A stretch of DNA of 64,000 nucleotides from Roseovarius aestuarii (GTDB lineage Bacteria > Pseudomonadota > Alphaproteobacteria > Rhodobacterales > Rhodobacteraceae). Under the pieces are notes generated by a model. It was not told the origin of the DNA. It ran no database searches and saw only the letters and a list, made by a program, of their open reading frames with translations. Shown here piece after piece: positions 3,860 through 53,256 of this stretch (position 1 is the stretch's first letter; every line of letters begins with the position of its first letter). The stretch is from the NCBI RefSeq assembly GCF_019966515.1, contig NZ_JAIMIB010000008.1, forward strand, positions 124,001 through 188,000. The letters are read 5' to 3'. A program made the position numbers and the translations under genes.

Positions 3860-3875
3860 AACGCTGTTAAATTGA

Positions 3876-3931: not shown

Positions 3932-3988
3932 GCCGCACGACCTAGATGTGGTACCAGTCCGAGCCCGTCACAGCGACCGGGATGTGGC

Positions 3989-4837: not shown

Positions 4838-5685
4838 TTCTTCGTGCCTTTGCCGCCGCTCTTACCGGGGGCCTGATCCGCAAATGTGTGTTCCGGTGCC
4901 GGGAAGCTACGGGCGCGCACCTCGGCGGCATAGGCGCTGATCGCTTTCTCGCCATCTTCACCCAGATTGCCAAATCGCTTGACAAATTTCGGTTTGAACT
5001 CGGTGAAAAGGCCCAGCATGTCGTCGACCACCAGGATCTGGCCGTCACACCCGGCGGACGCGCCGATGCCGATGGTGGGAATGGGAATGTCGTTGGTGAC
5101 ACTATCTGCCAGACTGGCGGGCACCTTCTCGAGCACTACCGAAAATGCCCCGGCATCGCTTATCGCCCTGGCATCGGCCAGTAACTTGTCGGCCCCGGCA
5201 TCGCGGCCTTGTACCTTGTAGCCGCCCAGCGTGTTGATTGATTGTGGTGTCAGGCCGATATGCGCCATGACCGGCACACCGCGGGCGACCAGAAACGCGA
5301 TTGTGTCGGCCATATGCTGACCCCCCTCCAGCTTGACCGCCGCCGCGCCGGTTTCGCGCATCAGCGTCGCGGCATTGGCGAAGGCCTGTTCGGGGCTTTC
5401 CTCGTAGCTGCCAAAGGGCATGTCGATGACAAGCATGGCGTGCTCAAGTCCACGGGCGACCGCCTGACCATGCAGGATCATCATCTCCATCGTGACACCG
5501 AGGGTCGAGGGTAGCCCGTGCAACACCATGCCAACGCTGTCACCAACCAGAACAAAATCGCAATGGGCATCCATCATGCGGGCCATTGGCGTTGTGTAGG
5601 CGGTGAGGCTGACAATCGGTTTGCCGCCCTTCATGGCGCGAATATCATCGGGCAATGGGGCGGATTTCTGGGCTGTGGCGCTCAT
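4834..5685 (-). CDS. panB: 3-methyl-2-oxobutanoate hydroxymethyltransferase
   Basis: 283 residues from ATG 5685; an in-frame start 14 codons upstream (5727) adds residues not typical of the family. PanB transfers a hydroxymethyl group from methylene-tetrahydrofolate to 2-oxoisovalerate, giving ketopantoate. The metal-binding and active-site regions are clear: [10 protein letters not shown], the LPSTLGVT loop, KLEGG and [11 protein letters not shown]. It is the first gene of the panB-panC pair and is divergent from the solute-binding-protein gene at 5846, sharing about 160 bases of upstream region. Confidence 0.96.
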
Positions 5686-5845
5686 TTTCTTGTCCGATTC
5701 ATGCTGCGTTGCAGCAAATCCTAACAAGTCTTCTCAGTAATTTCCACCGTTCTATTAACCGGACTGGCCTTGATCGCGCGGGTGATTTACACAAAGATTC
5801 GCGTAAAATGCCGGAATTGCTGCCGGATCAGATCGGAGGCGCGCA

Positions 5846-7336: not shown

Positions 7337-7472
7337 CGCGGCGGACGCTGCAATTTTCTGTCACGGCGGCTCTGTGCTGTCGCGGGGTTTTCATTCAGAA
7401 CAAAAGCTCTACACATATACATGCAGGGCAATACAGGATTGCCTGCGGGGGCGGATCGGTAAGGAAAAAAAC

Positions 7473-8273
7473 GTGCAGATCTTCCCATTGATAGCGGCAG
7501 CAGTCATCAGCGCGAGCACGATTATTGCTGCGACCAAGCCCGGCATCGCGCAGGATAATTCCTTTCGCAAATCCGATATCGTGCGCTTGATTGGGGAACT
7601 GCCGAACTATACGCCAATCCGCGAGGATATGATCGCGCTGGGATTTAAGGGCGAAAAGCTTGAAATGGCGGTGAACCAGATCGCCAGAATGCTGAACGAT
7701 CCGGTGATCGCCAGCAACATTGCGGATCGCGTGATAGCGGCGCGCAACCCGTCGATCGAGCCGGCCGAGGCCGGTGGGCTGTTCTGGCCGCTGGTCGATC
7801 GTGGGCTGGGACACCTTCCCCCGCGTGACCTGCGCTATTTCTATCTTGTCGAACAGACCATGCTGAAGGCACTTCCGACGCGTCAGTGCGGGTTGGCGGT
7901 CAAGGAAAGATTGGCGCCCGACAAGCTCGCGGCGGCGACAGGCCGGGTGGCTGCACGGCTGAACACACCGGCATTGCGGGAATATTACCGGATTCAGTAC
8001 GAGGCCGCGCGCCTCGGGGCCTCTCGCGATGTGACAATGCTGAGCAAGCGTGACGAGGCGCGTGTTGTCGAGAAGATCAACGAGGCCCTTGGCCGGACAC
8101 TGGCCGACAGACCGGATGCCCCCGCGTTGCTAAGGGCCTACGAGGACCTCAACCGCGTCAGCAACCGACGCGCCTGTATAGCGGGGCGCGTCTTCATGGA
8201 TGCGGTACTGGCGATGGAAGGGCGTGACCTGCATCATGCCCTCATTCTGCTGAGCGTGCCGTTGGGGTCCTAA
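7473..8273 (+). CDS. Exported hypothetical protein
   Basis: 266 residues from a GTG at 7473 preceded by AAGGA at 7461-7465; upstream in-frame codons lack this signal and give unlikely sequence. The N-terminus is a signal peptide (QIFPLIAAAVISAST, cleavage near the GIAQ residues), followed by a mostly helical domain without transmembrane segments. I see no catalytic motif. Two Cys residues (near QCGLAV and RACIAG) could form a disulphide. It lies 136 bases after the solute-binding protein and 3 bases before the YcaQ-like gene, so it probably shares a transcript with the latter. I do not recognise the family. Confidence 0.7.
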   Translation: MQIFPLIAAAVISASTIIAATKPGIAQDNSFRKSDIVRLIGELPNYTPIREDMIALGFKGEKLEMAVNQIARMLNDPVIASNIADRVIAARNPSIEPAEAGGLFWPLVDRGLGHLPPRDLRYFYLVEQTMLKALPTRQCGLAVKERLAPDKLAAATGRVAARLNTPALREYYRIQYEAARLGASRDVTMLSKRDEARVVEKINEALGRTLADRPDAPALLRAYEDLNRVSNRRACIAGRVFMDAVLAMEGRDLHHALILLSVPLGS

Positions 8274-8276
8274 GAG

Positions 8277-9446
8277 ATGGTGCTGAAGATTGCCAATCGC
8301 GATGCACGGCGGCTCTGGCTTTGGACAAACGGCCTGTCGCCAACGCCGGTGGGCAAGCCGGATGTCATGGAGATGATCCGCCGGTTGGGCTTTGTTCAGA
8401 TTGATACGATCCGCAACGTGACCCGTGCGCATCATCACATATTGTGGACGCGCAACCAGAATTACCGGGAAAAGATGCTATGGCCATTGTTGCAGTGCGA
8501 CAGGGCGATCTTTGAACACTTCACCCATGACGCCTCGCTGATCCCGATGGAGTATCTGCCATATTGGCAGCGACAGTTTCGCCGGCTGGGGGAAAAGGCA
8601 GCGCAGGGGCCGTGGTATCAATCGGGCCTTGCTCAGCAGGAAATCCGGAATATTCGCGCCCGAATAGAGCGGGAAGGCGCGCTGTCCACCCATGCTTTTG
8701 ACACCAAGATCGAGGGAAAGCGCGAAATGTGGGCGAGGCCGCCACACAAGAAAGCGCTGGACCAGATGTGGTATGCGGGCGACCTGGCTACCTGTTTCCG
8801 CGAGAATTTCGTGAAATTCTATAATCTCAGTGAACGTGTCTTTCCCGCCCACCTAAGAGAAGGCCCCAGTGAGGCCCGCCAGATTGACTGGCTGTGCCAT
8901 CAGGCGCTTGACCGGCTGACATTTGGCACCAGTGGCGACGTGCAACGCTTTTGGGATGTGGTCGGGGCGCAGGACGCAAAGAACTGGTGTGGCGAAATAC
9001 CTGATCTGGTACCTGTTGAGGTGCAGTCTGCAAGTGGCGATTACAACACCGCTTGGGCGGTTCCTGACATTGAAGAGCGGCTCAACAACTCGCCCGCACC
9101 GACCAAACGCCTGCGCCTGTTGAACCCTTTCGATCCGGCTATCCGGGACCGGAATCGGTTGACGCGGCTTTTCGGATTTGAATACCGAAACGAGATGTTC
9201 GTCCCCGCCGCCAAACGCCGCTGGGGCTATTACGTCTACCCGCTGCTTGAAGGCGATCGGTTTGTGGGCCGTATTGAGCTGAAAGCCGATCGTGCGCAGG
9301 GATGGATGAAGGTGACCGGTTTCTGGCCCGAGGTGCCGGTAAAATGGGGCGCCGCACGGTTGGAAAAGCTGGAGGCCGAGCTTGGGCGGTTTGCGCGGCT
9401 TGCTGGAATAGAGGATATTTCCTGGCATGCGCATCGGGCAGACTAA
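8277..9446 (+). CDS. YcaQ/AlkX-type winged-helix DNA glycosylase family protein
   Basis: 389 residues. It belongs to the HTH_42/AlkZ-like superfamily of tandem winged-helix proteins, some of which are DNA glycosylases that unhook interstrand crosslinks or remove alkylated bases. The catalytic Q-hydrophobic-D/Q motif appears as Gln41-Ile42-Asp43 within LGFVQIDTIRNVTRAHHH, the QxD form of the YcaQ/AlkX branch rather than the QxQ form of AlkZ. Downstream family features include LLNPFDP and a C-terminal RIELKADR strand. Activity is inferred from the motif only. It starts 3 bases after the exported hypothetical gene. Confidence 0.85.
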   Translation: MVLKIANRDARRLWLWTNGLSPTPVGKPDVMEMIRRLGFVQIDTIRNVTRAHHHILWTRNQNYREKMLWPLLQCDRAIFEHFTHDASLIPMEYLPYWQRQFRRLGEKAAQGPWYQSGLAQQEIRNIRARIEREGALSTHAFDTKIEGKREMWARPPHKKALDQMWYAGDLATCFRENFVKFYNLSERVFPAHLREGPSEARQIDWLCHQALDRLTFGTSGDVQRFWDVVGAQDAKNWCGEIPDLVPVEVQSASGDYNTAWAVPDIEERLNNSPAPTKRLRLLNPFDPAIRDRNRLTRLFGFEYRNEMFVPAAKRRWGYYVYPLLEGDRFVGRIELKADRAQGWMKVTGFWPEVPVKWGAARLEKLEAELGRFARLAGIEDISWHAHRAD

Positions 9447-38959: not shown

Positions 38960-40963
38960 TCATTGGGCAAGTCCGGCAAGCTTATTCTCAATCCGTTCCT
39001 GCGCTGCGTGAAGCAGGTCAACTTCGCGGCCAGCAGCACCAAGTTCTACCGCCCGTTTGAGATGCGCCTGCGCTTGATGCAACAGGTCTAAAGCCTCTGG
39101 CGCAGGTAATGCTAGAGCACGCATTTCCTTCGAGATAGACAGCTTGCGCAGCAGCGCCACTTCGAGCAGGGGCTGTTCGGTGTCCCGATAATGTGCCGCG
39201 GCATCGCCAAGCGCAGACTCAGCCGCGGTCAGGAGTGAGACGATATGTTCCGGAGGCGCGTTCGTCGCGTGGGTCAGCAGGGCAGAGCCCATGGCCCCGG
39301 AGGCCATAGCAGCATCCTGCGGCATCTTTTGCTCACGGTAGAATTGCCGCGCTTTGTCGAACTCGTCGATCGCCCGCTTCCGCCGCGCCGGATCACCATA
39401 GACTTTCGCCTGGCGTTCGATCACCGTAGCGACGCCAAACCTCGCGCCGGCCATGTTTATGATGTCCCCAAGGTCACCAAACAGCCGTGTGGCGCGGTCG
39501 AGAGCCGAGAACGCCTGGTCGAGGGTCTCAACAAGTTCGGCGCCATCTAACTGGTCGGCGAGCAATAGATGAGCATTGCCCAAATTGTTGAGCGCTCGTG
39601 CCACCGACGGCTGGTCATCACCAAACAGCTCGATCGCTTCACGCGACCCCGTGATCGCTGCGCGTAGCAAGTCTACCCGATCAGACGGCTTGGCGCGATG
39701 GGCCTGAGTCATCCGGGTCATCGAAAGATGATCCAGTGACGCCGCGCGTAAGTGTCCATCCGGCGTGTTCGCGGTGATTGTAAACGCTTCGATAGCCCGG
39801 TTTAGGATGTCGCTGCCGCTGGCGTCGGTGGCATACCGGCCCTGAGACAAGAGGGAGAGGCCGAGCAGGTTCTGCGCCTCGGCGAAAATCTTGGGATTGG
39901 AGGTGTCGACGGCTGCCAGAATCGCGTGTGCGACGCGTTCCGCAAATTCGGTTACAGGACCACCAAAACGCTCGCCATATTCGTAGAAGGCCCGCGCATA
40001 GGACAGGCGCCTGCGTGATGGTTCAAGCGGATCAAGGGCTGCGAAGCTGTCGGCGGCGCTCGAAAATAGCGTGAACGCCCGCTCAGGTCGCTGGCGCATC
40101 ATCGCAATGCGGGCCTGGGCCTCCATCACGCGCGCATTGTCCTCCAACGGTTTTCGGAGCGCGTCAGAGCTGGTCTCGCGGACCGAGACGAGGAGGCGTT
40201 CAGCCTCTTCGAGGTCGAGAGTCGCAATTGAGGCTTCGACTGCTGAAAGCACGTTGTCGATGCGCGGCGTTGTACCACGGAGCGTCTCTACTTCTTGTTG
40301 GAGGGCACGGTAATCATGCGCCTTCTCGATCAGGAACGCGCGCAGGTTGGCTGAGGTCATCTCCTCCGGCGCGGGCTCCCCGAAGCGAAGAGCCAGGGCA
40401 TCGAGGGTATCCCTGGTTTGTGCCTCAAGATTGTCGAGCTTTGCGGCGACGTGGTCGATCTTGTGCTCGGCGCGGTGTGCTGACTGCAAGCTTTCCGCCA
40501 TGTAGGCGGGTGTCAGGTCGGCCGCGTACGCCTTCGTGCGAAATAGCGGGACAAGCGTGGACTGAACAATCCCGGTAAAGAGCTTGCACATTTCCGGGCG
40601 ACGCATCTCGCCGGTCGGATCGGTCTTGTCAGAGAGTTTGGCCAGCATCGCCGTGGTGCAAGCCTCGGCATCCATGCTATTTGCCGTGATCTCCTGTGGC
40701 GTCAGAAGGCCCGCTTCGACCATCTGGACGAAAAGGATGTCTGCGTCCTTTGGTGCATCAAGAGCGCGGGCCAGAGCGGTTCGGGCGGCCTCGGTCAGTT
40801 CGTCGGCCATGGTTACAAGTGATTTCGGCGGACGTGCGGCGATCTTGCGGATGGCATCGTAAACCGCGAGGCCGGATTTTGGACTGGGGGCCGAAACAAA
40901 TCCACTCATTGCGGCGAGCAGACGGATGCCATTAGCGAGGTTGTCTTTCTGGCGAATAAACAT
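38960..40963 (-). CDS. Large TPR-containing protein of unknown function
   Basis: 667 residues from ATG 40963; a TTG five codons upstream is possible. No signal peptide or membrane helix. Residues about 1-150 are helical and include a FTGIVQSTLVPLFRTKAYAADL segment (cut here at 20 as FTGIVQSTLVPLFRTKAYAA). A coiled linker follows (KIDHVAAKLDNLEAQTRDTL), then LRAFLIEKAHDYRALQQEVE, and from about residue 250 to 660 repeated helical pairs of TPR type. This arrangement recalls the sensor halves of bacterial conflict proteins, but no nuclease, protease or NTPase effector is visible. It is divergent from the 808-residue gene. Confidence 0.8.
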   Translation of the reverse strand: MFIRQKDNLANGIRLLAAMSGFVSAPSPKSGLAVYDAIRKIAARPPKSLVTMADELTEAARTALARALDAPKDADILFVQMVEAGLLTPQEITANSMDAEACTTAMLAKLSDKTDPTGEMRRPEMCKLFTGIVQSTLVPLFRTKAYAADLTPAYMAESLQSAHRAEHKIDHVAAKLDNLEAQTRDTLDALALRFGEPAPEEMTSANLRAFLIEKAHDYRALQQEVETLRGTTPRIDNVLSAVEASIATLDLEEAERLLVSVRETSSDALRKPLEDNARVMEAQARIAMMRQRPERAFTLFSSAADSFAALDPLEPSRRRLSYARAFYEYGERFGGPVTEFAERVAHAILAAVDTSNPKIFAEAQNLLGLSLLSQGRYATDASGSDILNRAIEAFTITANTPDGHLRAASLDHLSMTRMTQAHRAKPSDRVDLLRAAITGSREAIELFGDDQPSVARALNNLGNAHLLLADQLDGAELVETLDQAFSALDRATRLFGDLGDIINMAGARFGVATVIERQAKVYGDPARRKRAIDEFDKARQFYREQKMPQDAAMASGAMGSALLTHATNAPPEHIVSLLTAAESALGDAAAHYRDTEQPLLEVALLRKLSISKEMRALALPAPEALDLLHQAQAHLKRAVELGAAGREVDLLHAAQERIENKLAGLAQ

Positions 40964-41284
40964 CTTAAAACCCGTCAATCAATGGCAAAAGAGTGCCATA
41001 TAGCTGTCCGGTTTGGCAACCGTGAAGCAATGATGTCAGATTACGATGCTCTCTGGAGCTGTGCCGCACGGACATGCGTCATGGCGAAAAATTATTATTT
41101 ATTTCAAAGATTTAGGTGATGTTTCCACCTGTTGCATGGGTTGACCGACGCAGAGGGTCGCCGGGGTATGAATCTCCATTCCAGTAGACATCTGCGGGTT
41201 GCTCGTGTGACGATCACAATAGTTTGCAACACATCAATTTAATGAACGGTTTGGATCACTCCCATTCTAACAGGAGCATTGCGC
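40964..41284. other. Divergent intergenic region between the TPR gene and the 808-residue gene
   Basis: About 320 bases without a supported gene. It holds the promoters of both flanking genes. An AT-rich tract (AATTATTATTTATTTCAAAG, about 41083-41102) is the most promoter-like part, and AGGAG precedes the forward start. I see no clear palindrome or terminator. Confidence 0.5.
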
Positions 41285-43711
41285 ATGGCACAGACGACAA
41301 CTCTTGGAAAGCTCATCAAGGACAAGTTCGGCGGGACGCTTGCCGTCACCTCCATTGGTGACATCAAGATCGTGATCACCAACGATCCCGATTACAAGGC
41401 AAAGACCTGGACCGTTACCGCCACCGGGGCCTCCAAATCCTATGCGTATCCACTTTTCGGAAACGATGCACTCTCGCTCAAGGATATCTCGGTTAGCCTG
41501 ACCTATAACGGGGCGAAGAGAGCGGCAAAAGGATTGCTCCGTGCCGATCTCAACTTCGGTGGGATCGACTTCGACGTAGAAGTTGCGCTTTCCAAGCGGA
41601 CGGAGAGTTTCAGCCTGACGTCCCAGCTAAGCAAGCCGGCCTCGCTGAGTTCGGTCGTTAGCAAGCTCAGCGCCGGTAAGGCCAAGGCCCCCGGTCAGAT
41701 GAAAGAAACGCTTATCGACCTGATCACCATGTCCATCGAAAGGGATGGTAAGAAGGGCTGGACGCTTGCGTCAAAGGGCAGGCTGAAACAGGCCGATTTC
41801 CTGCCGTTCGCAAGCAGCGCGACAAGCCTGTCGCTGATGATCGAGTACAGCGGCAAGAAGAAGCTAAGACTTACCCGGCTCGGGCTGGAGGGCGAGACAC
41901 GCATCGGCAGGTCTGGCGCCCTCTCAATCGGCTATACGTTCGGCCCGAAAATATCTGTTCTTTCAGGTAAGCTTAAAACCGACCCCAAGTCACCTGTCGT
42001 GTTCGAGGATGTTCTCAAGGTTTTGGGCCTCAAGGGGAGCGGTCCAAGGACGGACAAGCTTTCCACGCCAAAGGGCCTCGACATGGTAGCGGGTGAGCTG
42101 ACGCTCAATCTTGCCGATCAAAACCTGTTAGTCGCCGGGAGGAATTCACTCAAAGAGGATGCCTTTGTCTATGTCGCACGCACAACAGACTCGCCCACAC
42201 TCGCGCTGGGGGTGGCGACGCAAAAGGGTTGGAAGATGTCCGACCTTTCCCGGGATTTCGCGGTCGTCGACAAGGTTCTGACCTTTCGCCAATCCTTCCT
42301 TGCTCTGTCGACCAGCAATGTTTCTATCGAGAGCAAATTTTTTCCCAAGCTTGGTGCCCACACGTTCGATCTGACGACGGGGCTGAATGTCGGCGCAGAC
42401 CTCGCGATGAATAAGTCTCAGTCATCAGTTCTGGGCAAGGCGGTCTCGGGGCTGCTGGGGGGAACGCCCGAACTTCTGTTGCAGGCCAGCATCGGCCCCT
42501 CGGCCAAAGACACGACGTTTTCCGCCAATCTCGGAAATCTGGATCTGCATCTCAAAGTGCCCGGTACCCGCAAACCCGCGACCATGGAAATCAAACGTGC
42601 CAAGATGGAATTGTCCCTTGAGCCGTCTATCGCGGTCAGCGGTGACGTCCTGTTCCCCGCACCGCAGGGTCAGACCGTTGAGGTTACCGGCGCCGTCAAA
42701 GCCGAAGAGACCAAAGCGGGTCCCGTCCTGAGCTTTGTCGGACATGCGCACGACCAGTCCCAGAGCCTCGCCCCGCCGAAGAACGCCACGGGCCTGACAC
42801 TCAAGGACATCGGCGCAAGTTTCTCGATCGAGCCCGAAGCTTTCATCATCGGTCTGGACGGCTCCATGTGGATTGGAAAGGAGAGTGCGTCATTTGGCTT
42901 CGCCTTCGCGCTGCCGGAACTCAGCCCGACTTTCCTCAAGGCGAGCTACAGCCATCTTGATCTCGCGCCGATGTTCAAAGTGTTGTGCCGCGGCGCGAAA
43001 CTACCCAGAGAGCTCAATCGCGGCATCTCGTTCAGCAACCTGCTGATCTGGAGCTGCACCGATCCTTCCGGCACCTGCCGCCTGTCCGACAGGTCGTGCT
43101 ACGATGACGGGTTCGCGTTCCAGGGGGATGCGGATATTTTCAACTTTCCGGCCCATGCCGATTTGCAGATCACGACCAAGGGCATGTCCGGAAGCTTGTC
43201 CACGAGTAAGGCGTTTGGCGTTCCGAAAGTCTTTACCGTGGCCGATGCCCGCGACCATTCGAAGGGGCCGCAATTCGCCTTTAGCACCAGCAAACCTCCC
43301 TATCTGCACGCCAGCTATTTCGTCGATGTCCTGGGTTTTTCGGACACGACGAGCCTTGAGCTGACCAATCAAGGGTTCTCGCTTAGCGCAGTGATCAAGT
43401 TCAAGGGAGAGAAGATTTCGCTTAATTGTGTTCTTGGTGCGCGCAGCCCCGGACACTACGTGGCGTCGATGTCGGCAAGCGCTGACTTCAAAAAACATCC
43501 GATTGATCTCGGGGGAGGTCTGAAACTTAAATCTCTCAGTATCGGTATGTCGTCAAAGACTGGCATTTTCAGCGTCAAGGCCAAGGCAAAATATGGACCT
43601 TTACCCAAGTCCGCAAACATCACGATCTCGCTCAAGGATATCGCCCACCGGTTGGACCGCCTCGGCAAAGAGATCGAGAAGGAGCTGGGCAAGATCGGGA
43701 ATTGGTTCTAA
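41285..43711 (+). CDS. Large beta-rich protein of unknown family
   Basis: 808 residues from ATG 41285 (CAGGAG eight bases upstream). No signal peptide, membrane helix or catalytic motif is visible. The sequence is made of alternating hydrophobic/polar strands (VALSKRTESFSLTSQL, LSIGYTFGPKISVLSGKL, FGFAFALPELSPTFLKASYS) that recur with similar spacing, suggesting stacked beta modules. A Cys-rich patch (LIWSCTDPSGTCRLSDRSC, about residues 590-610) could hold disulphides or metal. The C-terminus is an amphipathic helix ending in Trp-Phe. I do not recognise the family; its partner may be the divergent TPR gene. Confidence 0.8.
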   Translation: MAQTTTLGKLIKDKFGGTLAVTSIGDIKIVITNDPDYKAKTWTVTATGASKSYAYPLFGNDALSLKDISVSLTYNGAKRAAKGLLRADLNFGGIDFDVEVALSKRTESFSLTSQLSKPASLSSVVSKLSAGKAKAPGQMKETLIDLITMSIERDGKKGWTLASKGRLKQADFLPFASSATSLSLMIEYSGKKKLRLTRLGLEGETRIGRSGALSIGYTFGPKISVLSGKLKTDPKSPVVFEDVLKVLGLKGSGPRTDKLSTPKGLDMVAGELTLNLADQNLLVAGRNSLKEDAFVYVARTTDSPTLALGVATQKGWKMSDLSRDFAVVDKVLTFRQSFLALSTSNVSIESKFFPKLGAHTFDLTTGLNVGADLAMNKSQSSVLGKAVSGLLGGTPELLLQASIGPSAKDTTFSANLGNLDLHLKVPGTRKPATMEIKRAKMELSLEPSIAVSGDVLFPAPQGQTVEVTGAVKAEETKAGPVLSFVGHAHDQSQSLAPPKNATGLTLKDIGASFSIEPEAFIIGLDGSMWIGKESASFGFAFALPELSPTFLKASYSHLDLAPMFKVLCRGAKLPRELNRGISFSNLLIWSCTDPSGTCRLSDRSCYDDGFAFQGDADIFNFPAHADLQITTKGMSGSLSTSKAFGVPKVFTVADARDHSKGPQFAFSTSKPPYLHASYFVDVLGFSDTTSLELTNQGFSLSAVIKFKGEKISLNCVLGARSPGHYVASMSASADFKKHPIDLGGGLKLKSLSIGMSSKTGIFSVKAKAKYGPLPKSANITISLKDIAHRLDRLGKEIEKELGKIGNWF

Positions 43712-44094
43712 CCGCGGCATTTCTTGAGCGAAAGATGTGCCGGTGATGAAGGTTGTACACACGGTCAAATGATCCCCGCAGTTTAGGCTCTTCGCTCGTG
43801 ATACAAAGCGGGCACCTGTTGTGTTTTCTGATGACACGACTTTTTGGCGATGGATCGCCCAAGCCTCGTAATTCTAGCCCAATGCGGACATTGGCCAATC
43901 AAGCCTTGAATTGCTGAACTGGGCGTCAAATGGTCCGCGAATGGTCCGCGAATGGTCCGCGAATGGTCCGTGACTCCAAGCTTTCAATCTGGCCGGTGTG
44001 ATTTCGATCAAGGCGATGGTTGGTTATCACGTCCATAGGAAAATCTCCGACCCATTATGAATCGCTGTCCACCCCTTTGTTCGGAGACCGTTCG
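43712..44094. other. Gene-free stretch before the Pat-like gene
   Basis: About 380 bases separating the 808-residue gene from the acetyltransferase gene. It contains a four-copy 11-bp tandem repeat (43929-43972) and no open frame that looks coding. The start of the following gene at 44095 is preceded by GGAG. Confidence 0.5.
43929..43972 (+). repeat. 11-bp tandem repeat, four copies
   Basis: The unit AATGGTCCGCG occurs three times exactly (43929-43961), then a fourth copy with one change (AATGGTCCGTG, 43962-43972). It lies about 120 bases upstream of the Pat-like gene. Eleven-base spacing puts successive units on nearly the same DNA face, so a binding array is possible; slippage-generated repeat is the simpler view. 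Confidence 0.85.
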
Positions 44095-46776
44095 ATGAAA
44101 TCCAATCCGCTCGCTCCCATGCTCGACCCTGTCTCAATCGCCGTTTTTGGGGCCAGCGCCTCGGGCAAAAGCGTCGGTTCGCAAGTCTATGCCAACCTGC
44201 TGAGCGGGGGCTTTACCGGCCCGGTTGTGCCGATCAATCCCAAGCACGACAAAATCGCCGACAAAGCCTGTCACGCGACCCTCGGTGAGGTCGGCGCGCA
44301 TATCGACCTGGCGGTTATTGCCACTCCCGCCCACACGATACCCGACATCATTCGCGATTGCGCCAAATCAGGCACCAGACACGCTATCGTTCTGTCTGCC
44401 GGCTTCGGAGAGGCAGGTGACGTAGGAAAACGGCTGGAAGCAGAATTGCTGGAAACAGCGCGGCGCAACGGCATCCGATTGCTTGGACCAAACTGCGTTG
44501 GCTTGGTCCGCCCGACTATTGGAATGAACGCAACCTTCCTGAAATCGGCGACACCAAAAGGGCGTATCGCGTTGATTTCTCAATCCGGAGCGCTGTGTTC
44601 CGCAATATCCGATTGGGCCGGCCCCAACCACCTTGGCTTTTCGGCGCTGGTTTCTTTGGGCAATTCTGCGGATGTGGGATTTGGCGATGTGCTGCAATAT
44701 CTGGCATCCGATCCGGATACTGACGCCATTTTGCTTTATGTCGAAGGTATCCGTCAGGCCCGGTCTTTTGTCAGTGCGCTGCGCGGGGCTGCGCGGATAA
44801 AACCCGTGATAGTGCTGAAATCCGGGCGCCATGTGCAAAGCTCGAGGGCGGCAACCACGCATACGGGTGCCCTGATCGGATCTGACGCGGTGTTCGATGC
44901 GGCGCTCGGACGTGCCGGCGCGGTGCGGGTCGACACGTTCGGCCAGCTTTTTGCTGCCGCTGAAATCCTTTCCGCGCATCGCCGCGCGGGTGGCAACCGA
45001 TTGGGCGTCATCACCAATGGCGGCGGCGCGGGCGTTTTGGCTGCCGATCGGGCAGGAGATTTCAATATCGATCTGTCTCAACCCTCGGAAACGACACTCA
45101 AGACACTGGACAAGGTCCTGTCGCCGAACTGGTCGCGGGGCAATCCGATCGACATCATCGGGGACGCAACCGCAGACCAGTTCGGCGCGGCGATAGCCGC
45201 TGGCGTGAAGGATGATGCGTTTGACGGGTTGCTGGTGATGCTGACACCGCAATCTATGACCGATGCCACTGCCGCGGCGCAGGCCGTTGTTGAAACAGTG
45301 GGCAAGCGACCGAAAAAACCGGTTTTGGCCTGTTGGATGGGTGAGACATCGGTAAATGAAGGGCGCGCCTTGCTCAGCAGCAACGGCATCCCGGATTTTA
45401 CAACACCGGAACGTGCGGTCGAGGCGTTTTCCTATCTTGCCCAGCATCACGCCAACCGTCTTCTGGCACAAGAAACGCCGGGTCCGCTTTCGGATCTTGA
45501 ACCGGCCGACCTGGAAGGTGCGCGGATGATCATCCAAGGCGTGCTTGCTGACGGCAGGTCGATGCTGTCCGACATTGAAGCTAAGGCGCTGATGCGCTGT
45601 TTCCACATCCCGGTCACGACAACGTTACCGGCTGACAGCGCCGCATCGGCCTTGATCGCTGCCGAGACGGTGGGTTTTCCCGTGGCGATGAAGATTAACT
45701 CGCCGCAGATTTCGCACAAATCCGATGTGCACGGCGTTCGCACCAACATAATGGGTGCCAGTGATGTAAAGCGCGTCTTTCACGAGATCATGGAGGCCGC
45801 TGCCCTGGCGCGTCCCGATGCATCCCTGCTAGGTGTAACGGTCGAGCGGATGGCAGCTGTCAGCGACGCCCGTGAATTGCTGGTCGGGGCAAGCCGCGAC
45901 CCGGTTTTCGGCGCCAGCATCGTGTTTGGAGCGGGCGGTACCATGGTCGAAGTGTTGCGCGACAGCTCCGTCACGCTGCCACCGCTGAACGAGGTGCTTG
46001 CAAACCGTTTGATCGACCGGACGCGGGTGTCAAAGCTGCTGACAGCAGTGCGAGATCGCGAGGCCGTGGACCGCGCCGCTGTTATCAACGTGCTGTGCCG
46101 CGTGTCGGAACTTGTAACCGAACTACCCGAAGTGCACGAACTGGACATCAACCCGCTTTTTGCCGGACCGGAGGATGTCATGGCGGTCGACGTGCGTATC
46201 GTTGTCCATCGCCCGCCAGCGGGCGACGGTCCGTTTGATCACCTTGTGATTGCACCTTACCCAAAACATCTTTCCCGCGCGTACCATCTGGATGACGGAA
46301 CGGCGTTGACAATTCGACCAATCCGCCCCGAGGACGCCGAAAGTGAACAGGCATTTGTGCGTGAACTGTCTCCGGGCGCGAAACAACTGCGCTTCATGGC
46401 CACGCTGAAAGAACTGAGCCCCGCCATGCTCTCGCGCTTCACCCAGATCGACTACGACCGGGAAATGGCCTTGGTTGCTGTGACCAAAAAAGACGGCAAG
46501 ACCCGGCAGCACGGCGTGGCGCGCTATTACATCAATGATGACAATACCAGCTGCGAATTCGCCATCGTGGTATCGGACGATTTGCAGCATCAGGGCATCG
46601 GTACGAAGCTGATGAAAGCACTGATGGAGGCCGCCCGCGATCATGGCCTGACCTCTATCGAAGGCTCTGTTCTGGCGCGAAACCAGCCGATGCTGGATTT
46701 GATGAAAGAACTTGGATTCAGCATCCAGACGTTCGCCAGTGACAGTGATGTCGTGCAGGTTGAGCGCTCGTTATGA
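44095..46776 (+). CDS. Pat-like protein: NDP-forming acyl-CoA synthetase fused to GNAT acetyltransferase
   Basis: 893 residues from ATG 44095. Order of domains: CoA-binding Rossmann (about 5-130), two succinyl-CoA-ligase-like domains (about 145-460), ATP-grasp (about 480-700) and a C-terminal GNAT domain (about 740-890, with the acetyl-CoA motif HQGIGTKLMKALME). This is the layout of PatZ/YfiQ and Salmonella Pat, which acetylate lysines of acetyl-CoA synthetase and other enzymes. His256 in THTGALIGSD matches the phosphorylated His of active ADP-forming acetyl-CoA synthetases, so the front half might still be catalytic. A deacetylase gene follows 31 bases downstream. Confidence 0.9.
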   Translation: MKSNPLAPMLDPVSIAVFGASASGKSVGSQVYANLLSGGFTGPVVPINPKHDKIADKACHATLGEVGAHIDLAVIATPAHTIPDIIRDCAKSGTRHAIVLSAGFGEAGDVGKRLEAELLETARRNGIRLLGPNCVGLVRPTIGMNATFLKSATPKGRIALISQSGALCSAISDWAGPNHLGFSALVSLGNSADVGFGDVLQYLASDPDTDAILLYVEGIRQARSFVSALRGAARIKPVIVLKSGRHVQSSRAATTHTGALIGSDAVFDAALGRAGAVRVDTFGQLFAAAEILSAHRRAGGNRLGVITNGGGAGVLAADRAGDFNIDLSQPSETTLKTLDKVLSPNWSRGNPIDIIGDATADQFGAAIAAGVKDDAFDGLLVMLTPQSMTDATAAAQAVVETVGKRPKKPVLACWMGETSVNEGRALLSSNGIPDFTTPERAVEAFSYLAQHHANRLLAQETPGPLSDLEPADLEGARMIIQGVLADGRSMLSDIEAKALMRCFHIPVTTTLPADSAASALIAAETVGFPVAMKINSPQISHKSDVHGVRTNIMGASDVKRVFHEIMEAAALARPDASLLGVTVERMAAVSDARELLVGASRDPVFGASIVFGAGGTMVEVLRDSSVTLPPLNEVLANRLIDRTRVSKLLTAVRDREAVDRAAVINVLCRVSELVTELPEVHELDINPLFAGPEDVMAVDVRIVVHRPPAGDGPFDHLVIAPYPKHLSRAYHLDDGTALTIRPIRPEDAESEQAFVRELSPGAKQLRFMATLKELSPAMLSRFTQIDYDREMALVAVTKKDGKTRQHGVARYYINDDNTSCEFAIVVSDDLQHQGIGTKLMKALMEAARDHGLTSIEGSVLARNQPMLDLMKELGFSIQTFASDSDVVQVERSL

Positions 46777-46807
46777 TCAGGCTTCCGCCATCCGAAAGAG
46801 TGCATAA

Positions 46808-47722
46808 ATGCTAGGTTTTGTTTCGCACTCCGACTGTCTGGAACACGACGCAGGCCCATGTCATCCCGAATGCCGCCAGCGGCTTGAGGCAATCGACAAC
46901 CAGTTGTTGATGTCGGGGTTGGATTTCGTCATCCGCCGCTACGATGCCCCCAAGGTTAGCCGGGAGGCTTTGGAACGCGTTCACGACCGAGAGTATATTT
47001 CGCGAGTCTATGACATGGCCCCCACAGACGGATCTGTCGAGATCGACGGAGATACGGTGATGTCTCCCGGCACACTGGCCGCAGCCGAACGCGCGGCTGG
47101 CGCAGGGGTGTTGGCCGTCGATCTGATCATGAAAGCCGAAGCTGGCCCGGTCTTTTGCGCGGTACGCCCCCCGGGCCACCACGCCGAACATGATCAGGCA
47201 ATGGGGTTTTGCCTGTTCAATAACATTGCTGTCGCCGCAGCCCATGCGATGGACGTTCACGGTGTAGAACGGGTGGCCATCGTGGATTTCGACGTGCATC
47301 ACGGCAACGGGACAGAGGATATTTTCATGCGCGACAATCGTGTGTTGTTCTGTTCCAGTTTCCAACACCCGTTCTACCCGTTTGCCGGCCACGATTCAGA
47401 GACTGCAAATCTGGTCGATGTACCACTCAGCGCGGGTACTGATGGCGCCGGTTTTCGCACCGCGATTTCCGACCACTGGTTGCCCGCGCTGCGCAAGTTC
47501 CGCCCCCAGTTTCTATTCATTTCCGCCGGGTTCGATGCGCATGTACTTGATGACATGTCGTCACTGGCGCTGTCCGATGCGGACTATGCCTGGATCACCA
47601 AAGAACTGCAGGCGATCGCGCAGGAGCATTGCAGTGGTCGGATCGTGTCGATGCTTGAAGGTGGATACGATCTGACGGCGTTGCCTCGCAGCGTGGTGGC
47701 TCATCTGAAAGAACTGCTGTGA
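46808..47722 (+). CDS. Histone-deacetylase-family (class II-like) amidohydrolase
   Basis: 304 residues. This zinc-dependent family removes acetyl groups from lysines, acetylpolyamines or related amides. The key motifs are intact: RPPGHHAE with the catalytic His pair (about residues 116-123), the zinc ligands in DFDVHHGNGTED, SAGFDAH for the second Asp, and EGGYD near the C-terminus. It begins 31 bases after the Pat-like acetyltransferase, so the two are probably cotranscribed, an arrangement pointing to reversible lysine acetylation. The true substrate could also be a small acetylated amine. Confidence 0.9.
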   Translation: MLGFVSHSDCLEHDAGPCHPECRQRLEAIDNQLLMSGLDFVIRRYDAPKVSREALERVHDREYISRVYDMAPTDGSVEIDGDTVMSPGTLAAAERAAGAGVLAVDLIMKAEAGPVFCAVRPPGHHAEHDQAMGFCLFNNIAVAAAHAMDVHGVERVAIVDFDVHHGNGTEDIFMRDNRVLFCSSFQHPFYPFAGHDSETANLVDVPLSAGTDGAGFRTAISDHWLPALRKFRPQFLFISAGFDAHVLDDMSSLALSDADYAWITKELQAIAQEHCSGRIVSMLEGGYDLTALPRSVVAHLKELL

Positions 47723-47932: not shown

Positions 47933-50377
47933 TCAGGCTTTGACGCGCAACATCTCCGGATCATATAGCGGCGTCATGTGAACCTGCGTCCGCACCCGTT
48001 CGGTTGCGACTTCCAGCTCGTAACTGCCTGACAATATGAATTCTTCGGTGACACCACCGGGATCGCGGATATAGCCTAGGCCGATGGATTTGCCGACCGT
48101 ATGGCCGAACCCGCCAGAGCTTAACCAGCCGACGCGCTTGCCGTTGCGATAGATGGTTTCGCGACCCAGCAGGACGGTATCAGGGTCAACTATAAAGCCG
48201 GCAAGCATCTTTTTGACACCGCCTGACCTTTGCGCTTCGACCGCTGCCCGGCCTTTGAAATCCAGGTTTCGGTTCAATTTGACGGCCCAGCCCAGCCCCG
48301 CCTCGAAAGGTGTATGATCCGGGCCGATATCCGATCCCCAGGCGCGATAGCCTTTTTCGAGCCGTAACGATTCAATCGTGCGGTATCCGGCGTTGATCAA
48401 CCCGTGATCCGCGCCCGCTTGCATCAACGCGGCATAGACCGTTTGCGCGTATTCGACCGGCAGGTGCAGCTCCCAGCCGAGCTCGCCCACATAGGTGATC
48501 CTGAGCGCCTGAACCGGGCAACCAGCGATGCCGATGGTGCGGATGGTGCCGAATTTAAAGGCGTCATTCGACACATCGTCGCGGGTGACTTGTTGCAGGA
48601 TATTGCGCGCCTCCGGCCCCATCAACGACAGCACCGCGTACGAGGAAGTGACATCGAAGAGCTGGCAATTCATGCCCCGAGGGATGTTGCGGCTGATCCA
48701 GTCAAAGTCGTGGGTGGCAAAGCCGGTGCCGGTGACGATGTAGAATTCATCATGCGCGACGCGTCCGATGGTCAGATCGCATTCGATCCCGCCATGATCG
48801 TTCAACAGCTGGGTGTAGGTCAGGCTGCCCACGGGTTTGTCAACGTTGCCCGCGCAGATCCAGTTCAGGGCCGAGAGCGCATCAGAACCTTTCAGCGTGA
48901 ACTTGGCGAAGGAGGTTTGATCAATCAGGATTGCGGCCTCACGCGCGGCCCGGTGTTCGCGCGCATTGGCGGCAAACCAGTTCTGGCGACCAAAGCTGTA
49001 GACGTCTTTCGGGGTCTCACCCAGACTGGTATCGGCAAACCAGTTGGGGCGTTCCCAGCCCAGCTTTTCGCCGAAACACGCACCTTGCGCCTTGAGCGTG
49101 TCGTAAAGCGGGGATTTGCGACAGGGGCGGCCGCTGTCATGTTCCTCGTACGGCCACGCCATGGTGTAGTGCTTGCCATAGGCCTCGACCGTGCGGGTGC
49201 GAACCCAATCGGTGTCGAAATGTGGGCGGCCAAAGCGGCGGATATCGGCGGACCACAGATCAAACGGTGGCTCGCCCTTGCTTGCCCATTCAGCCAGCGC
49301 CATGCCCGCGCCGCCGCCCGAGGCGATGCCGAATGCATTGAAGCCAGCACCGACGAAGAAATTCCGCAGCTCGGGGGCTTCGCCGATGATGAAGTTACCA
49401 TCAGGGGTAAAGCTTTCGGGGCCATTGGTAAGGGTCTTGATGCCCGCGGTCTGCAATCCCGGCACGCGCCCAAGAGCCTGCTCCATGATCTGTTCGAAAT
49501 GGTCGAAATTGCTGTCGAGCAGGGTGTAGTGGAAACCCTCGGGGATGCCATCCGCGGCCCAGGGGATCGGGTTCGGCTCATACCCGCCCATGACCAGCCC
49601 GCCGACCTCTTCTTTGTAGTAACACAGCCGGTCCGGATCGCGCAGCGTTGGCAGGTTGCCGGGTACGTTCATCGGTTCGGTGACCATGTACTGGTGTTCC
49701 ATCGACACCAGCGGCACGTTGACGCCAAACCGTTTGGCAAAGCTCCGCGTCCATTGTCCGGCGCAGACAATAACCTTTTCGCATTCGATCCGGCCCCGCT
49801 CGGTGATTACCGCACGGACCTTACCATCCTCGACCTCAAGATCGGTCACTTTGGTGTCCTCGAAGATGGAGGCCCCGGCCATGCGTGCGCCCTTTGCTAA
49901 AGCCTGGGTGATATCCGACGGATTGGCTTGGCCGTCGGTGGGCATAAAGGCCGCGCCCACCAGATCGGAGGCATCCATCAGCGGCCACAGATCCAGCGCC
50001 TCCTGCGGGGTCAGAAGCTCCATCTCCAGCCCGAAACTATGCGCGGTGGTGGCCTGACGCTTGACCTCGGTCCAGCGTTCCTGATTGCAGGCCAGGCGCA
50101 ACCCCCCATTCATCTTCCAGCCGGTGCCAAGGCCGGTTTCCTCTTCGATCTTGTTGTAAAGATCAACGGAATAGCCCAGCAACTGGGTGATATTGGCGTT
50201 CGATCGTAACTGCCCCACCAGGCCTGCCGCGTGGAAGGTCGTACCGCTTGTCAGCTTCTTGCGTTCCAGCAAAACCGTATCAGTCCAGCCCAGCTTGGCC
50301 AGATGATAGGCGGTCGAGCAGCCAATGATGCCGCCGCCGATGATGACCGCCTTGGCGGTTGAGGGGAGAGTTGCCAT
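47933..50377 (-). CDS. FAD-dependent oxidoreductase-GcvT fusion (dimethylglycine/sarcosine dehydrogenase type)
   Basis: 814 residues. The N-terminal DAO-type FAD domain starts with VIIGGGIIGCSTAYHLAKLG. The covalent-FAD His is probably His49 in SGTTFHAAGLVGQLR. The C-terminal half is a GcvT/aminomethyltransferase-like folate domain, with DIGPDHTPFEAGLGWAVKLN near the end. Such fusions demethylate dimethylglycine, sarcosine or related methylamines, passing the methyl carbon to tetrahydrofolate. It heads downstream of a choline-kinase-like gene and a betaine-type transporter on the same strand, fitting methylated-amine catabolism. The exact substrate is not determined. Confidence 0.9.
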   Translation of the reverse strand: MATLPSTAKAVIIGGGIIGCSTAYHLAKLGWTDTVLLERKKLTSGTTFHAAGLVGQLRSNANITQLLGYSVDLYNKIEEETGLGTGWKMNGGLRLACNQERWTEVKRQATTAHSFGLEMELLTPQEALDLWPLMDASDLVGAAFMPTDGQANPSDITQALAKGARMAGASIFEDTKVTDLEVEDGKVRAVITERGRIECEKVIVCAGQWTRSFAKRFGVNVPLVSMEHQYMVTEPMNVPGNLPTLRDPDRLCYYKEEVGGLVMGGYEPNPIPWAADGIPEGFHYTLLDSNFDHFEQIMEQALGRVPGLQTAGIKTLTNGPESFTPDGNFIIGEAPELRNFFVGAGFNAFGIASGGGAGMALAEWASKGEPPFDLWSADIRRFGRPHFDTDWVRTRTVEAYGKHYTMAWPYEEHDSGRPCRKSPLYDTLKAQGACFGEKLGWERPNWFADTSLGETPKDVYSFGRQNWFAANAREHRAAREAAILIDQTSFAKFTLKGSDALSALNWICAGNVDKPVGSLTYTQLLNDHGGIECDLTIGRVAHDEFYIVTGTGFATHDFDWISRNIPRGMNCQLFDVTSSYAVLSLMGPEARNILQQVTRDDVSNDAFKFGTIRTIGIAGCPVQALRITYVGELGWELHLPVEYAQTVYAALMQAGADHGLINAGYRTIESLRLEKGYRAWGSDIGPDHTPFEAGLGWAVKLNRNLDFKGRAAVEAQRSGGVKKMLAGFIVDPDTVLLGRETIYRNGKRVGWLSSGGFGHTVGKSIGLGYIRDPGGVTEEFILSGSYELEVATERVRTQVHMTPLYDPEMLRVKA

Positions 50378-50385
50378 GATAAGCC

Positions 50386-51255
50386 TCAGCTTTTCTTGAA
50401 GTCGTCAAATGCCGTGCGAAACAGCGCGAGGTTCTCTGCCGTGTAAGCCGCGTAATCGAAATCGATCTCCGAGGTGATTTCCGAAACCATGCTCCACATC
50501 GTTTCCCTTAGAAGAGACGCGCATTTCATCGCCGAATAGCGGTGCCGTAGGTGGTCGGTGATCGGCACCTCGAAATATGTCTCTAACATCCAGTTTTCCT
50601 GCGCTTCGCTGAGACCATTGTTCGACGCCAGCCCACCCAGATCGAAGAGCGGGCTGTTGAAACCGGCATAGTCGAAATCGATCAGCCAGAGGCGGCTGCC
50701 ATCATCGAGAAAATTACCGCAGAGCAGATCATTATGACCAAAGACCATGTCAAACGGCCCTGCCGCCCGTTCCAGCTCATTGCCGATGCCGACCAGCTCC
50801 GGAATCACCAGGGCGTGACTGCTCTCTCGCTCCAGCAGGCTGGTGGCGTAATCACGGATCACATGGAACACCCAGAACACCAAGCTTGGCCCGCGCAGGT
50901 GTTTTGGTACCTCGCGGTGGCACCGCGTCACCAGTTCCAGCACACGCGGCAGCATATCGGGTGCTCGCACGTCTTCCTCAGTCAGGGTGCGGCTTTCAAT
51001 GTAGTCCAGAACGGTGATGCCGCTCTCGGCATGGACAACCTTTGGCGACAGCCCGGCGGCATGGGCGGCTCGGCTGGCGGCTAACTCATTGAAGCGCATC
51101 ACCTGATGCAGGGGGATATCATCACCCACCCGGACAACATATTTGCCGGTATCATCGCTCACCAGATAGTTCACGTTGGTGATCCCTCCGGTCAAAGGCT
51201 CGGCGGTGATCTCTCCATGCCAGATCGGAAGGGTGCGGAAATCGGGATGGGTCAT
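50386..51255 (-). CDS. Choline/ethanolamine-kinase-like phosphotransferase
   Basis: 289 residues of the APH/choline-kinase fold. The catalytic loop is FGHNDLLCGNFL (about residues 172-183) and the Mg-binding motif is IDFDYAGFNSPLFDLG (about 195-210). The Gly-rich start LTGGITNVNYLV is also typical of choline kinases. It would phosphorylate choline or a similar amino alcohol with ATP. It sits between the transporter permease (3 bases upstream) and the FAD-GcvT gene (8 bases downstream), so it belongs to the same operon; substrate inference comes from that context. Confidence 0.87.
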   Translation of the reverse strand: MTHPDFRTLPIWHGEITAEPLTGGITNVNYLVSDDTGKYVVRVGDDIPLHQVMRFNELAASRAAHAAGLSPKVVHAESGITVLDYIESRTLTEEDVRAPDMLPRVLELVTRCHREVPKHLRGPSLVFWVFHVIRDYATSLLERESSHALVIPELVGIGNELERAAGPFDMVFGHNDLLCGNFLDDGSRLWLIDFDYAGFNSPLFDLGGLASNNGLSEAQENWMLETYFEVPITDHLRHRYSAMKCASLLRETMWSMVSEITSEIDFDYAAYTAENLALFRTAFDDFKKS

Positions 51256-51258
51256 GTC

Positions 51259-53256
51259 TCAGCTCTCCAGTCCATAGCGGATACGGGCTTTGCGGGCCCC
51301 GGCGTTGACCAGCCGGTCGGCGATGATGGCGATAAAGGCGATTGCAAGTCCCGCCACCAGGCCGCGGCCCGTATCGGCCTTGGTCAGGGCAATATAAACC
51401 TCCTGACCCAGATCACGGGTGCCGACGAGGGCGGTGATCACCAGCATCGACAGGGCCAGCATGATGGTCTGGTTGATGCCCAGCAGGATCTCGGGCAGGG
51501 CCAGCGGCAGGCGCACGAGGCGCAGAAGCTGTCGGGGTGTGCAGCCCGAGACAATCCCTGCTTCGATCAGGTCTTCACTGACATTGCGAATGCCGTGGGC
51601 AGCGTAGCGCACCGCCGGTGCAAGCGCATATAGCACGATGGCGATCAACGCGGTGAAATCACCCACCCGGAACAGCATGACCACGGGGATCAGGTAGACA
51701 AAGCTGGGCAGGGTTTGCAGCGTGTCGATAAAAACGCCGATCGCAACGCCTGCGCGTTTGTTTAGCGCTGCCAATACGCCCAGAGGCACACCGATGAGCG
51801 TGGCCAGTATAACCGAGGCACCGCAGAGGTAGACCGTCACCATCGCCTTGGCCCAAAGTCCCGTGACCACGATCAGACCGGACAGGGCGCCACACAGGAG
51901 TGCCAGCCTGATACCGCCGGCACGCCAGCCCAGCAGGGTCAGCATGGCGATGGCCCAGGGCCAGGGAATGCCCAGCAGGGTTTTCTTGATCGGCAGCAGG
52001 AAGTAGTGCAGGAAAAAGACTTTGATCGCTTCGAACGTGTCGAAATAGTTCACGTTCAAATACTTCACTGTATTGTCCCAGAAATCGCCGGTGGTGATGG
52101 TCTGGGTCTCGGGATATTCCAGAAACAGCGGTGAAAAACGGCCCAGCAGCCATGTCGCACTAAGAAGGACAAGCACCAGAACCGTGCGCCGGTGGCGCGA
52201 GGCCCAGCTGGCATCCTGTTTCGAATGGTGGACCTGGCCCATCCGCTCTGCGAAGGCCTGGCTCAGCCGATCGACGGCGATGGCCAGAACCACGATCGCG
52301 ATACCGGCCTCTAACCCGGCGCCGATATCGAGACGGCGCAGCGCGGCCAGCACGTCAAAACCCAGACCCCCGGCGCCGATCATCGAGGCGATGATCACCA
52401 TATTCAGCGTCAGCATGATCACCTGATTGACCCCAACCATCAGGCTGTGCGAGGCCGACGGGACCAGCACGCGCCACATCAGCTGGCGCGGGGTCGAGCC
52501 GACCATGCGGCCGAAATCCACCAGTTCGGGGTCTACCGACTTCAGCGCCAGAATCGTCACGCGCACCATCGGCGGCGTGGCATAGATGATCGTGGCGACC
52601 AGTGCCGAGACCGGGCCAAAACCAAACATGAAGAGGATGGGCACGAGATAGGCAAAGATCGGGATTGTCTGCATCAGGTCGAGAACGGGCGACAGGACAC
52701 GCTCACCAAGCGGATGGCGATAGGCCCAGATTCCAACCAACAGACCGCCACCAGCACCGATTGGTACGGCAATGAGGACCGAGGCGAGCGTGACCATCGC
52801 GCTGTCCCACTGGCCGAAAATCGCCAGATAGAGAAAACAGGCCCCGACCAGCGCGGCCAAGGCCCAGTCGCGGCAATACTGACCAAGGGCAATCACCGCT
52901 GCGGTGACCGCAATCCAGCTTATCGCGGGCAGCACCGTGCTGGCCTCTTTGCCCTGACCGACGCTGAAACCTTCGGCCAGCAACGACAGGACGAATTGAT
53001 AGGGTTGTTCAATCAGCCAGGCGATGGCACGGGTGACATCAGTGAACGAAAGCGGGCCAATGGCCGCCTCTTCGACCAGCCATTTCATCGCCGTCGAGAT
53101 GTAGGTTTTGAACGGGATAAGCCATGCCGAGGGGAACTTGATCAGCCAGCGCGCGTCCAGAGCCTTGGACAGGTCGCGCCCGTACTGGCCGAGCAGGATG
53201 GTGACAACGATCAGCGTGCAGATAAGGGCCAGCTGATTGCGATTGTCGATCATCAT
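51259..53256 (-). CDS. Betaine/choline-type ABC transporter permease, two fused permease domains
   Basis: 665 residues with about 12 or more hydrophobic segments. Two ProW/OpuAB-like permease domains are fused: each carries an EAA-like loop, GSTPRQLMWRVLVPSASHSL (about residue 255) and GCTPRQLLRLVRLPLALPEI (about residue 590). Most family members have a single domain, so this protein can supply both halves of the membrane channel. Its ATG overlaps the ATPase gene stop by 4 bases. It imports a quaternary amine such as choline or glycine betaine, judging by family and neighbours. Confidence 0.9.
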   Translation of the reverse strand: MMIDNRNQLALICTLIVVTILLGQYGRDLSKALDARWLIKFPSAWLIPFKTYISTAMKWLVEEAAIGPLSFTDVTRAIAWLIEQPYQFVLSLLAEGFSVGQGKEASTVLPAISWIAVTAAVIALGQYCRDWALAALVGACFLYLAIFGQWDSAMVTLASVLIAVPIGAGGGLLVGIWAYRHPLGERVLSPVLDLMQTIPIFAYLVPILFMFGFGPVSALVATIIYATPPMVRVTILALKSVDPELVDFGRMVGSTPRQLMWRVLVPSASHSLMVGVNQVIMLTLNMVIIASMIGAGGLGFDVLAALRRLDIGAGLEAGIAIVVLAIAVDRLSQAFAERMGQVHHSKQDASWASRHRRTVLVLVLLSATWLLGRFSPLFLEYPETQTITTGDFWDNTVKYLNVNYFDTFEAIKVFFLHYFLLPIKKTLLGIPWPWAIAMLTLLGWRAGGIRLALLCGALSGLIVVTGLWAKAMVTVYLCGASVILATLIGVPLGVLAALNKRAGVAIGVFIDTLQTLPSFVYLIPVVMLFRVGDFTALIAIVLYALAPAVRYAAHGIRNVSEDLIEAGIVSGCTPRQLLRLVRLPLALPEILLGINQTIMLALSMLVITALVGTRDLGQEVYIALTKADTGRGLVAGLAIAFIAIIADRLVNAGARKARIRYGLES

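What the first reader, a model, noticed from the sequence alone, without database searches (positions are those of the whole stretch)
44095..47722. Protein acetyltransferase and deacetylase encoded side by side
A Pat-like acetyltransferase is followed after 31 bases by a histone-deacetylase-family enzyme. Bacteria more often pair Pat with a sirtuin encoded elsewhere. This adjacency suggests a self-contained on/off switch for lysine acetylation using a zinc-dependent eraser.
Basis: partly seen in the sequence, partly recalled or inferred. Interest (0 to 1): 0.5.

Follow-up and report, generated by a model that had tools for sequence, protein, structure and literature searches.

The report
Paired acetyltransferase and zinc deacetylase genes
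Two neighbouring bacterial genes encode an enzyme that probably attaches acyl groups to proteins and one that probably removes them; the two stay together in scattered marine bacteria and some relatives, which suggests a portable on/off switch, although neither enzyme's target has been tested.

Summary
Window 44095-46776 (+) encodes an 893-residue Pat-type protein: an NDP-forming acyl-CoA synthetase fused to a GNAT acetyltransferase. After 31 bases, 46808-47722 (+) encodes a 304-residue HDAC-family zinc deacylase with its catalytic residues. The pair is not unique. Of 39 HDAC relatives found in a scan of species genomes, 35 have Pat directly upstream and three have it next door in other arrangements. 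No third gene is shared by most loci. It is patchy, not a general roseobacter trait: 8 of 218 genomes of the family sample, this one included; 2 of 23 other genomes of the genus. The HDAC is separate from the copy most relatives carry. Motifs favour protein deacetylation, but the substrate is untested. "Self-contained" is too strong: this genome also holds a sirtuin and two more HDAC-family genes. Added here: the synthetase half keeps the phospho-histidine and ATP-grasp Asp-x-Asn that E. coli PatZ lacks, so it may be active; unpaired relatives keep them too. Best reading: a two-gene reversible lysine-acylation module that works like Bacillus acuA/acuC but is built from different parts.

The parts
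44095..46776 (+). Pat-type protein, 893 aa: NDP-forming acyl-CoA synthetase fused to GNAT acetyltransferase
   Evidence: start chosen from homologous ORFs
44134..44508 (+). CoA_binding_2 domain
   Evidence: P0001 residues 39-163
44557..44970 (+). Succ_CoA_lig domain, carries the phospho-histidine loop
   Evidence: P0001 residues 180-317
44860..44862 (+). codon of the putative phospho-histidine (THTGA motif)
   Evidence: aligned to SHTGA of 4-hydroxybutyrate-CoA ligase 8wzu; absent from E. coli PatZ 9it0; His in 93 of 93 aligned proteins, window included
45007..45402 (+). Ligase_CoA_2 domain
   Evidence: P0001 residues 330-461
45541..46206 (+). ATP-grasp_5 domain, with LDINP
   Evidence: P0001 residues 508-729; Asp-x-Asn in 93 of 93 aligned proteins, window included; Asp-x-His in PatZ
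46306..46719 (+). GNAT acetyltransferase domain
   Evidence: P0001 residues 763-900 (Acetyltransf_3), 809-900 (Acetyltransf_1)
46777..46807 (+). 31-nt intergenic gap
46808..47722 (+). HDAC-family zinc-dependent deacylase, 304 aa
47165..47182 (+). RPPGHH motif: foot-pocket loop and double catalytic His (H124, H125)
   Evidence: motif meaning from PMC11532494
47657..47668 (+). EGGY motif with catalytic Tyr287
   Evidence: motif meaning from PMC11532494

Best explanation
The two genes form a small operon for reversible lysine acylation. The GNAT domain of the first protein acylates lysines of cellular proteins, and the fused synthetase domain binds or makes acyl-CoA and so sets the rate. The second protein, a zinc-dependent deacetylase, removes the group without using NAD. 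Likely first targets are AMP-forming acyl-CoA synthetases such as the AcsA proteins of this genome, which carry PKTRSGK (that this is the usual Acs acetylation site is recalled). Shown here: gene structure, families, catalytic residues, linkage and co-evolution. Inferred: co-transcription, protein rather than small-molecule substrates, shared targets, and the identity of the acyl group.
For: Adjacency in 35 of 39 HDAC-found loci with gaps of 2-110 nt. Three more have the genes adjacent in another arrangement: L078 HDAC then Pat, L080 and L081 divergent; L121 and L122, found with Pat, are divergent too. In the family sample 8 of 8 genomes with the HDAC orthologue, this one included, have Pat immediately upstream. 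Tree distances of the two proteins correlate over 39 pairs (r 0.92, 0 of 2000 permutations reach it; alpha-proteobacterial subset of 35, r 0.82, 0 of 2000). No third gene is shared by most loci. RPPGHH, GFC and EGGY present, Met at the gatekeeper site. GNAT Glu kept in 92 of 93 aligned proteins. Two AcsA genes above cut-off and a third relative carry PKTRSGK.
Against: No activity data. Two family genomes (G087, G165) keep Pat at 59% and 70% without a neighbouring HDAC. L079 has the HDAC without Pat within 7 kb. Seven unpaired Pats of the same clade have no HDAC within about 8 kb. The 44 type I proteins outside that clade show no HDAC within about 1.5 kb, so Pat does not generally need this partner. 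The genome holds other erasers. Tree correlation is also expected if two genes merely travel together. Promoter and terminator scans were at chance level.
Confidence: 0.62

Rival explanations
1. The pair acts on small molecules: the synthetase half activates an organic acid, the GNAT half N-acylates an amine, and the HDAC-family enzyme is an amidohydrolase for that amide or for acetylpolyamines.
For: Cluster 1 of bacterial HDAC relatives includes pesticide amidohydrolases (PMC11532494). The model is as close to HDAC10 (5td7, Z 41.1, rmsd 1.8, 299 aligned) as to HDAC6 (6wyq, Z 40.9, rmsd 1.7, 299 aligned). The synthetase residues look intact.
Against: RPP is complete (RPA in the two small-molecule members), EGGY present, no Glu gatekeeper. 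No catabolic gene is shared by most loci. Type I GNATs studied so far are described as protein acetyltransferases (PMC8556138, section 7).
Confidence: 0.18
2. The HDAC serves Pat itself: Pat acylates its own lysines or a partner, and the HDAC resets it.
For: Close linkage and correlated trees; nothing here tests it directly.
Against: Self-acylation in this clade was not tested; nothing in the calls points to it.
Confidence: 0.08
3. The two genes are only neighbours with separate jobs, kept together by horizontal spread as one piece.
For: Patchy distribution and unrelated flanks in G014 and G016; three Aurantimonas loci (order Hyphomicrobiales) nest among Rhodobacterales in both trees.
Against: Order and orientation differ between lineages while adjacency is kept.
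Confidence: 0.12

Closest known systems
acuABC of Bacillus subtilis (AcuA acetyltransferase, AcuC zinc deacetylase)
   Same: A GNAT writer and a zinc-dependent eraser encoded together
   Different: AcuA is not a type I enzyme with a synthetase domain; AcuB lies in the operon and acsA lies divergently upstream; AcuC falls in cluster 2 with class I HDACs (PMC11532494), while after 5ji5 the window enzyme's best PDB matches are HDAC6, 5zmp and HdaH-type enzymes
Type I Pat: E. coli PatZ (PDB 9it0, 9isq) and Salmonella Pat
   Same: Synthetase domain then GNAT; sequence match over nearly the whole length (E 2.9e-158); fold match Z 37.8, rmsd 15.1, 821 aligned, 35% identity
   Different: PatZ lacks the phospho-His and has Asp-x-His in place of Asp-x-Asn; its eraser CobB is a sirtuin encoded elsewhere (recalled)
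RpPat and LdaA of Rhodopseudomonas palustris
   Same: Protein acetyltransferase opposed by a zinc-dependent deacetylase on acyl-CoA synthetases (PMC6640162, passages)
   Different: RpPat is a GNAT-only enzyme (PMC8556138, passage); whether its gene lies by ldaA was not checked
PDB 5ji5, HDAC-superfamily protein of Burkholderia phymatum
   Same: 51% identity, Z 47.7, rmsd 1.3 over 302 residues
   Different: No function given in the entry title; its gene neighbours were not examined
ADP-forming acetyl-CoA synthetase ACD1 of Ca. Korarchaeum (4xyl and others)
   Same: Same synthetase fold (4xyl_A Z 42.4, rmsd 2.1, 449 aligned); the histidine comparison is with 8wzu
   Different: No GNAT domain; separate subunits

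Membership tests
[quoted passage not shown]
Type I Pat acetyltransferase | Synthetase domain inactive for lack of the catalytic His (as reviewed in PMC8556138, section 7) | tested here: not met
   His present in the window protein and in 93 of 93 aligned proteins, window included; activity itself not tested
Type I Pat acetyltransferase | Acetylates protein lysines | not testable with these tools
   needs enzyme assay
Classical zinc-dependent deacylase (HDAC family) | Double His, Asp/His/Asp zinc ligands, catalytic Tyr | tested here: met
   H124 H125, D162 H164 D243, Y287
Classical zinc-dependent deacylase (HDAC family) | RPP and EGGY motifs of robust deacetylases | tested here: met
   RPPGHH and EGGY against PMC11532494 section 13
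Polyamine deacetylase, HDAC10 type | Glu gatekeeper (PEG) | tested here: not met
   DMS at that place, Met250, by alignment to HDAC6 (PKG, PLG); definition
Polyamine deacetylase, bacterial ApaH type (cluster 4) | L2 polyamine-specificity loop and PIS motif | tested here: inconclusive
   DMS instead of PIS, but no direct alignment to an ApaH sequence was made
acuABC module | acuB gene between or beside the two | tested here: not met
   31-nt gap; the upstream ORF 41279-43711 has no Pfam match and the downstream one is an oxidoreductase on the other strand
acuABC module | acsA divergently upstream | tested here: not met
   The two AcsA genes above cut-off lie on contigs C9 and C57, the window on C58

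The most novel reading that the evidence does not exclude
The pair is an acid-sensing acylation cycle that supplies its own donor: the intact ADP-forming synthetase half makes acyl-CoA from a free acid and ATP, the fused GNAT half passes the acyl group to a lysine, and the neighbouring zinc deacylase returns the free acid. The mark would then report ATP and the acid directly rather than the general acetyl-CoA pool.
Probability: 0.18. Interest if true: 0.72.

Novelty: new variant of a known kind. Interest (0 to 1): 0.42.

Why it matters
It gives a compact, portable writer-eraser pair in Gram-negative marine bacteria whose partners are defined by gene linkage, so substrates of an HDAC-family enzyme could be sought directly. 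It also shows that the published statement that type I Pat synthetase domains lack the catalytic histidine does not hold for the set of proteobacterial relatives read here, so a second enzymatic activity in these proteins can be tested.

Tried and rejected
Pat-HDAC fusion: G087 showed a 1214-aa open frame, but the extra length lies before the Pat start and holds no HDAC match; rejected.

His retention as a special mark of the pair: rejected; unpaired relatives keep it too (93 of 93 aligned proteins, window included).

A third conserved partner: I clustered ORFs of 41 loci (window, L035, L046-L084; L034 dropped as a duplicate of L046). The clusters in 20 or more loci, apart from the two genes, are ORFs on other frames inside them, plus one transporter-like cluster in 24 loci at varying positions that I took as superfamily similarity and did not follow. 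The next, a FAD-oxidoreductase-like ORF (named by eye), is in 16 loci, mostly Aliiroseovarius, and in one of them (L073) at a different place.

Sirtuin in place of the HDAC beside unpaired Pats: none within about 8 kb in 7 loci by tblastn with this genome's sirtuin at E 1e-5; distant sirtuins could be missed.

Promoter and terminator scans were at chance level (3 found against mean 1.7; 5 against mean 4.2) and decide nothing.

Fold comparison cannot separate protein from polyamine deacetylases: HDAC6 and HDAC10 score alike; no ApaH entry is among the 50 rows shown, which says nothing either way. The Pat model is only moderate (mean pLDDT 72.5, pTM 0.55).

Plasmid search: no record with a relative above 60% identity to either protein. 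A Variovorax plasmid has Pat, then a 158-aa ORF that looks like an Hsp20 (by eye, no call), then the HDAC; a Cupriavidus plasmid has the HDAC without Pat within 5 kb.

Paper searches in the held library listed no paper that names such a pair (listings only, except the four papers named in the report); most subscription papers are not held.

Full report
What is there. The window holds two genes on the + strand, 44095-46776 and 46808-47722, 31 bases apart. The first is a fusion of an NDP-forming acyl-CoA synthetase with a GNAT acetyltransferase; its best match among solved structures is E. coli PatZ (9it0, E 2.9e-158; named so). The second is an HDAC-family enzyme, closest to 5ji5 of Burkholderia phymatum (E 1.9e-108; Z 47.7, rmsd 1.3 over 302 residues).

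Conservation of the pair. A scan of one genome per species with an alignment of three HDACs gave 39 loci. The scan used two peptide patterns taken from HDACs that were all paired, so it favours this clade. In 35 of 39 the Pat homologue lies directly upstream on the same strand, gap 2-110 nt; two of these have Pat cut by the contig end (L063, L076), and in L075 the Pat frame is interrupted. L078 has HDAC then Pat, L080 and L081 are divergent, L079 has none within 7 kb. In 218 genomes of the family, this one included, the HDAC orthologue (E at most 1e-110) is in 8 and Pat (E at most 1e-120) in 11, of which nine are 59% identical or more; the other two are 43% (no GNAT part) and 38%. All 8 HDAC genomes have Pat next door; G157's is a fragment at a contig end, not in the list. 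G087 and G165 have Pat alone, with only more distant HDACs elsewhere. Among 23 other genomes of the same genus the orthologue is in 2 (G014, G016). So the pair is real, linked and patchy.

Orthologue or paralogue. The genome has three HDAC-family genes. The copy that the relatives usually carry is 44-52% identical to the window enzyme and falls outside the clade of paired HDACs in the tree (44 tips, the unpaired L079 among them, support 0.83).

Wider Pat family. Type I relatives are common: 83 of 385 genomes of the class and 99 of 398 of the phylum at E at most 1e-150, this genome included in both; a few of these matches stop before the GNAT part. I read only the loci handed out for the best 30 matches of each search. 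In a tree of 93 proteins, 49 form one clade with the window protein (support 1.0), of which 40 are paired; many were found through the HDAC, so this is not an unbiased rate. The 44 outside it show no HDAC within about 1.5 kb, less where a contig ends. Of the ten clade members that came in through the phylum search with Pat, three are paired (L120, L121, L122). The other seven have neither HDAC nor sirtuin within about 8 kb.

Active sites. HDAC: H124 H125, D162 H164 D243, Y287, RPPGHH, GFC and EGGY. RPP and EGGY are marks of robust deacetylases in PMC11532494 (sections 6, 13, 15 and 16 read). The gatekeeper position is Met250, not the Glu of HDAC10. One paired relative, L066, has Asp in place of the zinc-ligand His164. 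Pat: the phospho-His and the ATP-grasp Asp-x-Asn are kept in 93 of 93 aligned proteins, window included, and the GNAT Glu in 92 of 93. PatZ lacks the His and has Asp-x-His. A review says the synthetase domain of type I and II enzymes is inactive, for type II and by reference type I for lack of the His (PMC8556138, section 7). That cannot be taken over for this set; lower-scoring relatives (down to about 35%) were not read. Whether the domain works is untested.

Co-evolution. Distances in the two trees correlate (r 0.92 over 39 pairs, 0 of 2000 permutations; alpha subset of 35, r 0.82, 0 of 2000). Flanks of G014 and G016 differ from each other and no third gene is shared by most of 41 loci; the largest true neighbour cluster is in 16, mostly Aliiroseovarius. 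Three Aurantimonas loci (Hyphomicrobiales) nest among Rhodobacterales in both trees, which points to horizontal spread.

Setting. The genome also has a sirtuin, two AcsA genes above cut-off and a third relative, all with PKTRSGK, so it has likely targets and other erasers. Zinc erasers beside acetyltransferases are known from acuABC (PMC8556138 passages; PMC13121692 outline and abstract); RpPat and LdaA oppose each other in Rhodopseudomonas (PMC6640162 passages).

Verdict. The switch reading is likely but should lose "self-contained", and the new point is a possibly active synthetase half.

Noticed in passing
window 43931-43974: An 11-base unit (TGGTCCGCGAA) repeated about four times in tandem just upstream of the Pat gene.
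   Followed up: no
window 41279-43711 (+): An 810-aa ORF upstream of the pair with no Pfam or NCBIfam match at E 0.001.
   Followed up: no
window 38960-40978 (-): A 672-aa ORF with no Pfam or NCBIfam match at E 0.001.
   Followed up: no
window 47933-53256 (-): Downstream, on the other strand: a DAO plus GCV_T oxidoreductase, a choline-kinase-like protein and an ABC permease with two permease domains that matches choline and glycine-betaine permease models.
   Followed up: no
L154 (Variovorax plasmid), 1235-5915: Pat and HDAC relatives with a 158-aa ORF between them that looks like an Hsp20 chaperone; recognised by eye only.
   Followed up: partly
L066 6822-7733: The Aurantimonas marianensis HDAC has Asp where the zinc-ligand His stands; in alignment A3, which holds its relative L062 but not L066, that His is invariant.
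   Followed up: no
L089 (G111), 7004-9079: A synthetase 43% identical to the Pat but lacking the GNAT part.
   Followed up: no
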